Assembly: GCA_017472695.1 (NCBI GenBank)
Contig: JAFUOQ010000003.1
Span: 1-64,000, forward strand
Direction: 5' to 3'
Source of the DNA: Clostridia bacterium
GTDB taxonomy: Bacteria > Bacillota > Clostridia > Oscillospirales > CAG-272
DNA length: 64,000 nucleotides
Below, piece by piece: positions 19,247 to 25,648 of the stretch; the first letter of the stretch is position 1; the number at the start of each line of letters is the position of its first letter. Below the pieces are notes generated by a model. That model did no database searches and was not told the origin of the DNA. It worked only from the letters and a program-made list of their open reading frames with translations. Made by a program: the position numbers and the translations under genes.

Positions 19247-19448
19247 TATTTTTATATTAGCCCACCGTGCCGTGTAGAATAACCATTTGAACCTTGTTCT
19301 AAACAAGGGGGAGTCCGCATAATACCTTTACTGCTTCCAACATCTATCGCACCCTCGTCCGACTTTCATCTCATTAAGAGGAGGGAGATAGGAGGCCTGC
19401 ACACCGGTATAGGATATAAGACTCCATTTAATAAGTGTAGCTCGAATA
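19247..19448 (-). ncRNA. ssrS: Probable 6S RNA
   Basis: No ORF is supported in this interval. The minus-strand transcript ends with GTTCAAATGG, then CACGGCACGGTGGGCT, closely like the 3' arm of known 6S RNAs, and the hairpin CCTTGTTTAGAACAAGG precedes it as in the 6S central bubble. The 5' part can pair back in steps (CCUAU, CCG-UGU, CUAUC/GAUAG, CCCUC/GAGGG), giving the long rod with an open middle expected of an RNA that mimics a melted promoter and binds sigma-70 RNA polymerase. A strong terminator follows, and TAGAAT near 19455 is a candidate -10. About 190-200 nt, the usual size. The 5' end is approximate. Confidence 0.7.
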
Positions 19449-19498
19449 CATCATTCTATCACAAACATAGCAGGTTTAAATCAATATTAAATTGTTTA

Positions 19499-24137: not shown

Positions 24138-24166
24138 TTGACAAAAATATAACTAACGGTTATAAT
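24138..24166 (+). promoter_or_regulatory. Consensus promoter of the antitoxin RNA
   Basis: TTGACA (24138-24143), an exact 17-nt spacer and TATAAT (24161-24166): a perfect sigma-A promoter with no ORF behind it. Confidence 0.92.
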
Positions 24167-24172
24167 GGATAT

Positions 24173-24262
24173 AGAAAGAGCCATCCGATGACGGTTAGCC
24201 CTTTCGTGAGAATCAGAAATTAATCGCCTTCTCGGTCAAAAGCAAGGCGATTATTTCTTTTA
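24173..24262 (+). ncRNA. Antisense antitoxin RNA of a type I module
   Basis: A transcript of about 90 nt is delimited by the perfect promoter at 24138-24166 and a strong terminator AATCGCCTT/AAGGCGATT (24222-24230, 24244-24252) with a T-run. Its 5' part holds a small stem-loop (GGCTAACCGTCA complement). It runs towards the toxin gene on the other strand and overlaps the 3' part of that mRNA. This is the arrangement of type I antitoxins in Firmicutes (for example RatA/TxpA, SR4/BsrG). Confidence 0.75.
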
Positions 24263-24374
24263 TTATCGTTTTTTGTTTAAGAATATAGCAATTATTGTTG
24301 CCAACATAATAACGAAGGCAAACATATCGCTGTATGTAACAAACATACAATAAAGGTGCGTATAAATAGTTCAT
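24213..24374 (-). CDS. Possible leader ORF overlapping the toxin
   Basis: 53 codons from ATG 24374, which has AAAGGAG 9 nt upstream. It overlaps the whole toxin gene in another frame. The peptide (MNYLYAPLLYVCYIQRYVC at its start) is not family-like. By analogy with mok in hok/sok, its translation could carry ribosomes to the toxin start. It may also be non-functional, with the SD region acting only as a control element. Confidence 0.35.
   Translation of the reverse strand: MNYLYAPLLYVCYIQRYVCLRYYVGNNNCYILKQKTIIKEIIALLLTEKAINF
24263..24346 (-). CDS. Small hydrophobic (holin-like) type I toxin
   Basis: 27 residues: MFVTYSDMFAFVIML, then ATIIAIFLNKKR. A polar start, one membrane-spanning stretch and a basic tail match the small putative holin-like toxins found in many Firmicutes, which insert in the membrane and depolarise it. 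It stops one base before the convergent antisense RNA's terminator ends. It has no Shine-Dalgarno of its own; the nearest strong one (AAAGGAG, 24385-24391) serves an overlapping frame starting at 24374, so expression may be by translational coupling. Too short for standard gene callers. Confidence 0.7.
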   Translation of the reverse strand: MFVTYSDMFAFVIMLATIIAIFLNKKR

Positions 24375-24383
24375 ATCGCACCA

Positions 24384-24427
24384 CTCCTTTCGTATTTATT
24401 TGAAAGGAGCAAAGAATAACTCCTTTC
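24384..24427 (-). promoter_or_regulatory. Alternative SD / anti-SD hairpin in the toxin leader
   Basis: Minus-strand order: GAAAGGAG (24427-24420), CTCCTTTC (24409-24402), GAAAGGAG (24391-24384). The middle copy can pair with either flanking one. Pairing with the first leaves the functional ribosome site free; pairing with the second hides it. This could keep the full-length mRNA silent until processing or refolding. Confidence 0.7.
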
Positions 24428-24477
24428 ATTTTATTGAAAAGAGCATAACCGCCACCGTATGGATGACTCCCAAGGGT

Positions 24478-24506
24478 ATATTATCATAAAGTGCAAAATT
24501 TGTCAA
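24478..24506 (-). promoter_or_regulatory. Consensus promoter of the toxin mRNA
   Basis: Minus strand TTGACA (24506-24501), a 17-nt spacer and TAATAT (24483-24478). The predicted start near 24470 gives a leader of about 125 nt before the toxin. Confidence 0.9.
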
Positions 24507-24514
24507 GTGAATAT

Positions 24515-24556
24515 TAGTTAAGCGAGTGCCGAAAAAATCAGCACTCGCCATTTTTA
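24515..24556. terminator. GAGTGC-type hairpin behind the XRE-TPR gene
   Basis: GCGAGTGC (24522-24529) and GCACTCGC (24541-24548) with an A-rich loop. It sits at the end of the leftward gene at 24554 and directly upstream of the toxin promoter. Confidence 0.7.
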
Positions 24557-25648
24557 TATGCTTAACAATTTTAGTATTTCTTGAAATTCTTTTGTTTCTC
24601 TTATACTATCAAAATCTTTTGCCGAAAGCCAAACATCACGCATTTTTATTCGTGTTGGTCTCGGGTCGGCAGTTTCATAATTGGTCTTTTCCCATTCTCT
24701 GCAACCTAACAATAAGCTTTCACAAAAACCATTTTCGGCTCTGTTATCAAAATCAATAGCCCATTTTGCAGTTGTTTTTAATGTTTCAATAGCCTTATCT
24801 GTCTTTTCAAGTCGTGCATATATTTTAGCCATATCAACGAGAGCACCTTCGTCAAGCCAATTCTCAATTGAATGTTTTCCGTCATAAATCAAACTATCTA
24901 ATTCAATCAATTTTTCAAACACTTTGATTGAATCCTCGTCAGACAGATATTTACCACTTGCTAAATGCCACATTTCATAAGACAAATTTCGAGCAGACCT
25001 GTTTAAATTGTTTCTTATAAATGGCAACTTTTCGCTTTCATTTAATGCCCACCACATTTGATTTTCCCTTGTATTTTCCTCGGATGGTAGTGTTTCATAA
25101 AGTTTTCTTCCTACATCCTTTCTTCCCATTTCGCAATGTTGAAAGGCAAGTCGGCTTGTTGCTTCTAATCTTATATTTTGGTCGGGACAGTATTTTATAA
25201 TACGTTCACCAAGGGAAACAATCTCGGAATCATATTTTTGCAAATTTTCCTTCCATTCTGGTATATCGGCATCGTCTGAGCAAGATATAAATAGTGCATA
25301 CATAAGTTTGTTTAAAAGCTTATAATTGTTAGGAAATTCTTTTACTCCCTCACGAGCAATACGCACACATTCATATACTAACCCCTTACTAATCGCTACT
25401 TGAAAATCATATAAATACTTTTCTACAATTTCATTTTCAAGCTTTTCATCCATTCCCATTAGTTTATCAACCGTTGTGTTGAAAAAGTTTGCAATTATAG
25501 GTAACATTTCAACATCAGGGTAGCAAGCATCAGTTTCCCAACGGGAAATGGTTTGACAAGAAACATTAAAGATTTCGGCAAGTTGTTCTTGCGTAATATC
25601 TCGTTCTCTACGTAATTTTTTTATGTTGTCGCCTATGCTTAATCTCAT
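24554..25648 (-). CDS. XRE-family regulator with TPR-like domain
   Basis: 364 residues. Helix-turn-helix at 1-62 (DITQEQLAEIFNVSCQTISRW), then about 290 residues of paired helices consistent with TPR repeats (EWKENLQKYDSEIVSLGERI; VFEKLIELDSLIYDGKHSIE). Similar proteins sense peptides or protein partners, though no peptide gene is seen here. AAGGAG precedes ATG. A palindrome between promoter and gene (25675-25684) suggests self-repression. Confidence 0.85.
   Translation of the reverse strand: MRLSIGDNIKKLRRERDITQEQLAEIFNVSCQTISRWETDACYPDVEMLPIIANFFNTTVDKLMGMDEKLENEIVEKYLYDFQVAISKGLVYECVRIAREGVKEFPNNYKLLNKLMYALFISCSDDADIPEWKENLQKYDSEIVSLGERIIKYCPDQNIRLEATSRLAFQHCEMGRKDVGRKLYETLPSEENTRENQMWWALNESEKLPFIRNNLNRSARNLSYEMWHLASGKYLSDEDSIKVFEKLIELDSLIYDGKHSIENWLDEGALVDMAKIYARLEKTDKAIETLKTTAKWAIDFDNRAENGFCESLLLGCREWEKTNYETADPRPTRIKMRDVWLSAKDFDSIRETKEFQEILKLLSI

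What the first reader, a model, noticed from the sequence alone, without database searches (positions are those of the whole stretch)
24138..24506. Type I toxin-antitoxin module with a built-in SD switch and overlapping frames
Two consensus promoters (plus 24138-24166, minus 24506-24478, both with 17-nt spacers) face each other. The plus transcript ends in a strong terminator at 24262 and has no ORF. The minus transcript encodes a 27-residue hydrophobic peptide with a Lys/Arg tail, like the holin-like toxins of Firmicutes. The toxin lacks its own ribosome site. The only strong one (24384-24391) serves a 53-codon ORF that overlaps the toxin in another frame, recalling mok/hok. Upstream, GAAAGGAG, CTCCTTTC and GAAAGGAG offer mutually exclusive pairings that hide or free that site. 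Convergent overlap is seen directly; coupling and switching are inference.
Basis: partly seen in the sequence, partly recalled or inferred. Interest (0 to 1): 0.82.

Follow-up and report, generated by a model that had tools for sequence, protein, structure and literature searches.

The report
Toxin-antitoxin gene with overlapping leader frame
A likely self-poisoning gene and its antisense RNA in an uncultured gut Clostridia bacterium, in which the only ribosome site belongs to a second, out-of-frame reading frame laid over the toxin; relatives suggest that evolution keeps that second frame open.

Summary
The feature is real. 24138-24506 is a chromosomal type I toxin-antitoxin-like module: convergent promoters, a 27-residue hydrophobic peptide (minus), a short RNA (plus), shared terminator. 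The same module was read in 10 of 194 relative genomes, own included; a covariance model matches 26 of 395 family genomes. Two of eight relatives' peptides pass the Pfam Hol_Tox cut-off; the window's own does not hit. Two architectures share one RNA chassis. In the 'direct' type a strong SD precedes the toxin. In the window's 'leader' type the SD precedes an out-of-frame start inside a GGUGC/GCACC hairpin and the toxin ATG has no SD (16 of 16 selected loci). The leader frame is +1 or +2, never 0, and stays open over the toxin beyond synonymous expectation (0 of 2000 shuffles; third frame 548 of 2000), though its peptide is not conserved. So translating the leader seems to matter, as with mok/hok. 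The SD lies in a covarying hairpin. The proposed hide/free switch is not supported: both alternative folds hide the SD. A ~30-bp 5'-3' complementarity of a read-through toxin RNA is cognate-biased. Expression and toxicity are untested.

The parts
24478..24506 (-). toxin promoter TTGACA-17-TAATAT, TG-extended -10
   Evidence: toxin promoters >=10/12 in 37 of 44 loci
24138..24166 (+). antisense (antitoxin) RNA promoter TTGACA-17-TATAAT
   Evidence: >=10/12 in 32 of 32 testable loci
24447..24457 (-). strongly conserved 5' motif CGGTGGCGGTT of the toxin RNA
24436..24470 (-). 5' arm of the predicted 5'-3' long-distance pairing
24436..24443 (-). element A (CUCUUUUC), pairs with B
24420..24427 (-). 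element B (GAAAGGAG)
24402..24409 (-). element C (CUCCUUUC), anti-SD
   Evidence: C:D standard pairs in 271 of 275 cells
24384..24391 (-). element D (GAAAGGAG), the only strong Shine-Dalgarno site
24355..24382 (-). hairpin GGTGCG...CGCACC enclosing the leader start codon
24213..24374 (-). leader ORF, 53 codons, out of frame with the toxin
   Evidence: selection for openness
24263..24346 (-). toxin ORF, 27 codons (MFVTYSDMFAFVIMLATIIAIFLNKKR); some relatives hit Hol_Tox
   Evidence: pN/pS 0.33 in relatives
24173..24262 (+). antisense RNA (predicted ends): 5' hairpin then terminator
24174..24206 (-). 3' arm of the predicted 5'-3' pairing (opposite the antisense 5' hairpin)
24223..24253 (.). shared terminator hairpin; U-tract good on plus, weak on minus

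Best explanation
A chromosomal type I toxin-antitoxin module of the Hol_Tox kind in its 'leader' form. The minus RNA carries a small membrane peptide whose translation is blocked in the primary transcript because the only SD is paired in a hairpin (C:D). When that SD is reached, ribosomes start at the leader AUG and translate out of frame across the toxin; this passage is needed to open, or bring ribosomes to, the SD-less toxin start (mok-like coupling). The plus RNA is the antitoxin: it overlaps the toxin RNA at the shared terminator, and a toxin RNA reading through that terminator could also pair its 5' and 3' ends over about 30 bp. Shown by sequence and comparison: architecture, lack of toxin SD, SD hairpin, leader frame kept open, toxin peptide under purifying selection. 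Inferred: toxicity, antisense repression, the direction of the leader's effect, and the 5'-3' interaction in vivo.
For: Module read in 10 of 194 relative genomes (own included); model match in 26 of 395 family genomes (34 of its 36 matches inspected as modules); 16 of 56 pattern hits in named genomes are modules, all MAGs titled Clostridia or Oscillospiraceae. Two of 8 relatives' peptides pass the Hol_Tox cut-off, 4 hit below it, 2 do not. Toxin frame pN/pS 0.33, leader frame 0.94 over 15 pairs. Anti-SD energy -6.7 to -11.4 at the leader start and no better than -2.4 at the toxin start in 16 selected loci, against -10.3 to -17.1 at the toxin start of 17 direct loci. Leader frame open over 96% of the toxin against 52% in synonymous shuffles, 0 of 2000; third frame 548 of 2000; 16 direct-type controls 0.16 vs 0.26 and 0.75 vs 0.70 expected. 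With 5 clusters and the worst member of each: 18 of 3000. Leader offset never in frame: 0 of 23 loci, 11 at +1, 12 at +2, many of them near relatives. A:B, C:D and hairpin covariation: 94.5% of cells paired, 18 of 21 pairs with both-side changes, 0 of 500 shuffles.
Against: No expression or toxicity data. The window peptide itself has no Pfam or NCBIfam hit at E<=1. Selection for an open leader frame does not say whether leader translation helps or hinders the toxin. The loci are not independent: at 72% toxin identity they fall into 5 clusters, and one leader (L011_1525) stops about halfway through the toxin. In several leader loci the toxin frame is also open upstream, with GTG, TTG or ATG codons that could give longer toxins. 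Pairing of the antisense 5' region with the toxin 5' UTR is no better for cognate than non-cognate pairs, and over the SD of leader loci near shuffle level (mean z -0.45), so where the antitoxin acts is unclear. The 5'-3' pairing needs transcription past the terminator, which is unproven.
Confidence: 0.6

Rival explanations
1. Decoy or occlusion: the leader AUG captures the SD so that ribosomes run over the toxin in the wrong frame, keeping toxin output very low. A stop in the leader frame would release ribosomes near the toxin start, hence selection for an open frame.
For: Leader start close behind the SD; never in frame with the toxin; stops avoided. Explains why the toxin start has no SD.
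Against: Openness extends over the whole toxin in 11 of the 14 loci, more than is needed to prevent reinitiation at the toxin start. It gives no clear route for toxin translation.
Confidence: 0.2
2. Hairpin bypass: the same SD serves the toxin AUG when the GGUGC/GCACC hairpin folds and shortens the spacer (as recalled for phage T4 gene 38); the leader AUG is the alternative start when the hairpin is open.
For: The stem is present in the 23 leader loci read (L077 included), with one-sided changes only; stem end to toxin start is 8-13 nt.
Against: L006, a degenerate copy, has a mismatch in the stem. The effective SD-to-start distance (about 9-15 nt) is on the long side. It does not by itself explain selection for a long open leader frame.
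Confidence: 0.15
3. Stand-alone small membrane protein with an incidental antisense RNA, not a toxin-antitoxin pair.
For: No toxicity data; the family name Hol_Tox is an annotation, not a test.
Against: Consensus promoter of the antisense RNA in the 32 testable loci, constant convergent layout, SD-hiding hairpin and Hol_Tox kinship are typical of type I toxins; the module is absent beside close homologs of its neighbour gene.
Confidence: 0.05

Closest known systems
hok/mok/Sok (type I, plasmid R1)
   Same: Toxin gene with a leader ORF (mok) in its long 5' UTR whose translation is required for the toxin (PMC4147584, passages read); full-length mRNA inert until 3' processing (PMC4147584, PMC6733600, passages read).
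   Different: Unrelated toxin; here the antisense RNA is convergent at the 3' end and not over the leader; the host is a Clostridia bacterium; the leader role here is inferred from selection only.
Hol_Tox (PF16935) type I toxins; TxpA/RatA and BsrG/SR4 of Bacillus are recalled as likely relatives
   Same: Peptide family (through homologs) and convergent layout with 3' overlap.
   Different: The overlapping leader ORF, its start-codon hairpin and the lack of a toxin SD; no such feature appears in the passages read (PMC4147584, PMC6562991).
Fst / par RNA I-RNA II (pAD1)
   Same: Convergent RNAs sharing a terminator (PMC4147584, passage); a short direct repeat at the SD and in the antisense 5' region (ACGAAAGG) in the window, like DRa/DRb.
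   Different: Such pairing is not consistently better than shuffles in the other leader loci; different peptide family.
aapA/IsoA (Helicobacter)
   Same: SD-hiding hairpins that form in turn during transcription, plus a 5'-3' interaction (PMC6733600, passages).
   Different: No overlapping leader ORF is mentioned in the passages read.

Membership tests
Type I toxin-antitoxin module | small hydrophobic peptide gene plus overlapping antisense RNA from the opposite strand | tested here: met
   (sequence level only)
Type I toxin-antitoxin module | peptide is toxic and the RNA represses it | not testable with these tools
   needs expression in a laboratory host
Type I toxin-antitoxin module | primary transcript not translatable: SD sequestered | tested here: met
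   (prediction plus covariation)
Hol_Tox PF16935 | score above Pfam gathering cut-off | tested here: inconclusive
   window peptide: no hit; 2 of 8 relatives above cut-off, best 2e-10; window peptide 31-67% identical to the relatives of alignment A1
mok/hok-type coupling | out-of-frame leader ORF overlapping the toxin and owning the ribosome site | tested here: met
mok/hok-type coupling | toxin translation depends on leader translation | not testable with these tools
   reporter fusions needed
hok family by sequence | Hok/Gef protein homology | tested here: not met
   no Pfam hit for the window peptide at E<=1; no Hok hit among the 8 relatives
Fst/par | Fst toxin family | tested here: not met
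   no Fst hit in the Pfam scans
Known Rfam RNA family | match above gathering score | tested here: not met
   none overlapping; sub-threshold RsaJ 29.9 bits against 100, E 3.3e-5, reduced to the terminator hairpin at 13.3 bits in a shorter stretch

The most novel reading that the evidence does not exclude
A mok-like obligatory overlapping leader frame arose independently of hok in a Hol_Tox toxin lineage of gut Clostridia: a short insertion between SD and toxin start kept the old start codon out of frame, put it inside a hairpin, and made toxin synthesis depend on ribosomes reading the wrong frame across the toxin gene. Sister loci without the leader, sometimes in the same genome, provide a natural comparison.
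Probability: 0.45. Interest if true: 0.7.

Novelty: new variant of a known kind. Interest (0 to 1): 0.56.

Why it matters
If true, overlapping-frame control of a toxin has evolved more than once, with unrelated toxins in Gram-negative bacteria and in Clostridia, which would say that the arrangement itself is useful. The paired direct and leader architectures let the role of the leader be tested by simple swaps. The separation of signals (open frame kept, peptide sequence not) would be an unusually clean case of selection for the act of translation.

Tried and rejected
The pattern search was mis-typed (one N too many); its hits in 3 of 394 genomes were ignored. Peptide tblastn in phages and plasmids and DNA 'distant' searches there gave nothing. 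Viral contigs: two pattern hits, both unrelated on inspection; a stricter direct-type pattern gave none; 25 stretches carry a 17-base form of the 5' motif, none with the downstream antisense motif. So no phage or plasmid link was found in these collections.

The SD switch by B:C pairing was tested and not supported. A trans antisense:SD interaction was tested: suggestive in direct loci (mean z -1.9), weak in leader loci (plain letter shuffles). A transposon-like reading of the inverted repeat was considered but not tested.

Choices and dropped rows; of the 17 matching genomes I read the module in 10; the other 7 (G002, G015, G037, G047, G054, G142, G170) have short matches of 31-101 query bases that I did not show to be modules, although G002 has a direct-type module elsewhere (L084); matches L089 and L098 were not confirmed. 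One search keeps loci with a GGAG-GGTGC pattern and a toxin that begins with one of four pentapeptides; L077 was added by hand. Several of the 23 are near-duplicates (L066/L065, L078/L108, L008/L021/L091, L075/L076, L004/L020); 16 were selected for, which left out L011_1525, whose leader stops about halfway; one search counts it. L006 (toxin end shifted, antisense part lost) and L027/L073 (toxin interrupted) were left out. The 17 direct starts were picked as the SD-preceded ones, so their having an SD is partly by choice. One search used 36 distinct cores of the 47 matches; one search used all 45 distinct rows, among them three partial matches on the opposite strand. Antisense 5' regions were located in 37 of 46 entries (missed: L071, L078, L108, L096, L159, L037, L088, L098, L036, by pattern or truncation); searches used 28 each, 25, 32, 32 of them; one of the four matches outside the family parses as a direct module, two show the antisense motif only, one shows neither motif.

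Literature: ten searches gave listings, some capped; passages only were read in PMC4147584, PMC6562991, PMC6733600 and PMC8309996. None of the listings or passages seen describes an overlapping leader ORF in a Hol_Tox system; this covers open-licence papers only. The T4 gene 38 analogy and the TxpA/BsrG kinship are recalled.

Full report
What is there. On the minus strand a promoter at 24506-24478 drives an RNA with a 5' motif CGGTGGCGGTT, four alternating elements A (CUCUUUUC), B (GAAAGGAG), C (CUCCUUUC), D (GAAAGGAG, the SD), a hairpin GGTGCG/CGCACC that holds the start codon of a 53-codon ORF, and then a 27-codon ORF for a hydrophobic peptide in another frame. On the plus strand a perfect promoter at 24138-24166 faces it; the predicted RNA folds into a 5' hairpin and a terminator. 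Promoter-like sites at 9/12 or better are no more frequent here than in shuffles (7 found, mean 7.9), so conservation is the real test.

Conservation. A DNA search of 194 relative genomes (own included) gave matches in 17. In 10 of these I read the module, with peptides of the form M(F)VTYEALFAF...; the other seven matches are short and were not shown to be this module. The window genome has one copy. A covariance model of the leader matches 26 of 395 family genomes, 36 places, of which 34 were inspected as modules. In an order-wide sample it matches 8 of 394 genomes: five are family members already counted, and of the four places in three other families one (L159) is a clear direct-type module and two show the antisense motif. 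A pattern scan of the named genomes gave 56 stretches, of which 16 are modules on inspection, all in MAGs titled Clostridia or Oscillospiraceae, several from deer, goat and sheep guts. The phage, plasmid and viral searches that I made gave no module.

Toxin family. Of eight relatives' peptides two pass the Pfam Hol_Tox cut-off (40.8 and 26.5 bits against 23.3), four hit below it and two do not hit; the window peptide does not hit. The toxin frame is under purifying selection in relatives (pN/pS 0.33 over 15 pairs).

Two architectures. Loci fall into a direct type, where a strong SD sits just before the toxin (17 picked loci, -10.3 to -17.1 kcal/mol with the anti-SD), and a leader type like the window, where the SD (-6.7 to -11.4) serves an out-of-frame start and the toxin ATG has none (-2.4 or weaker in 16 of 16 selected loci); random windows average -2.0 with a 5% tail at -9.3. 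Both share the 5' motif, the hairpins, terminator and antisense region. In L133 a direct and a leader module lie in tandem, and G050, G055 and G717 carry both types. In several leader loci the toxin frame is open further upstream, with possible GTG, TTG or ATG starts, so a longer toxin is not excluded there.

The leader is translated, by selection. The leader start codon is ATG in 22 of 23 loci and TTG in one; its offset to the toxin is +1 in 11 and +2 in 12 and never 0 (near-duplicates included). In 14 loci the leader frame is open over 96% of the toxin; synonymous shuffles of the toxin give 52% and none of 2000 reaches the observed value. The third frame is not special (548 of 2000), and direct-type toxins show no clear excess in either frame (0.16 observed against 0.26, and 0.75 against 0.70). 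Collapsing to five clusters and taking the worst member of each, including L011_1525 whose leader stops about halfway, still gives 18 of 3000. Within the overlap the leader peptide evolves about neutrally (pN/pS 0.94), so the act of translation and not the product seems to be kept. Relatedness of the loci, and the roughness of pN/pS in overlapping frames, are the main caveats.

RNA structure. A:B, C:D and the start-codon hairpin covary: 94.5% of cells paired, 18 of 21 pairs with changes on both sides, 0 of 500 shuffles, slid structures at most 66.1% paired. The alignment was fitted to this structure, its 45 rows include three partial opposite-strand matches, and the start-codon helix mixes leader and direct loci. 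In 36 distinct full cores C:D pairs in 98.5% of cells, A:B in 89.9%, B:C in 86.7% and A:D in 85.5%. In the window A:B+C:D (-43.3) and A:D around B:C (-42.6) are nearly equal and both hide the SD; freeing it costs about 8 kcal/mol. So the elements look like redundant covers and not a simple on/off switch. This resembles the successive SD-hiding hairpins reported for aapA3 (PMC6733600, passages).

5'-3' complementarity. The toxin RNA 5' end and the stretch opposite the antisense 5' hairpin can pair over about 30 bp. Cognate pairs beat non-cognate ones by 8.5 kcal/mol on average (best of all in 9 of 25 loci; mean rank 3.8 of 24 where 12 is expected), but in three of the 25 (L020, L095, L084) the cognate pair ranks below the middle. 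Of 32 long transcripts 27 are predicted to form at least 15 such pairs. It requires read-through of the shared terminator, whose U-tract is weak on the toxin strand. A simpler reading, that both RNAs need similar 5' hairpins, is not excluded. The SD stays covered in both short and long forms (0.03 and 0.10 unpaired on average).

Antitoxin action. Pairing of the antisense 5' region with the toxin 5' UTR was no better for cognate pairs (mean difference 0.06 and -0.06 kcal/mol). Over the SD region alone it beats shuffles in direct loci (mean z -1.9; L097 -4.9) but hardly in leader loci (mean z -0.45; the window -1.9). The shared 3' overlap remains the sure contact.

Genomic setting. The module lies just downstream of an HTH-TPR regulator gene (24554-25648). 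The three closest homologs of that gene (83-89% identical, in G018, G011, G012) have no sequence similar to the module beside them in the stretches compared by blastn, so it is a gain or loss relative to them.

Comparison and verdict. It works most like mok/hok in its leader and like convergent Hol_Tox/TxpA or Fst systems in its layout; by Pfam it is not a Hok or Fst protein. The review passages read name leader coupling for hok/Sok and ldrD/RdlD of E. coli (PMC6562991), and none of the searches listed under Tried and rejected showed it for a Hol_Tox system. I rate it a new variant of a known kind; mok-like coupling is the favoured reading, with decoy and hairpin bypass as live rivals.

Noticed in passing
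window 24554-25648 (-); G003:C87, G005:C154, G013:C31: An HTH-TPR regulator gene abuts the module; matches to this gene (19 in the window's genome; 26, 38 and 17 in G003, G005 and G013) also lie within about 1 kb of modules in three same-genus genomes. Not tested against chance.
   Followed up: partly
window 22320, 23976, 24522: Three similar intergenic hairpins (AAGCGAGTGC...), two of them bracketing the intergenic stretch with the module; similar sequence in relatives.
   Followed up: no
window 19255-19479 (-): 6S RNA above Rfam threshold.
   Followed up: no
L019, L006; L065, L020: L019 and L006 carry a roughly 45-nt GC-rich insert between elements C and D of the leader; L065, L020 and others carry a roughly 40-nt GC-rich insert between promoter and 5' motif.
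   Followed up: no
L133 2398-2485: Leader-type module reduced to a single SD-hiding hairpin, in tandem with a direct-type module.
   Followed up: partly
antisense 5' hairpins of L070, L077, L094, L081 and others: The predicted hairpin loop reads GNRA (GUGA, GCGA, GUAA) in these loci and AUGA in the window and others.
   Followed up: no
L027/L073: A copy with an interrupted toxin on the same contig as an intact leader-type copy.
   Followed up: no
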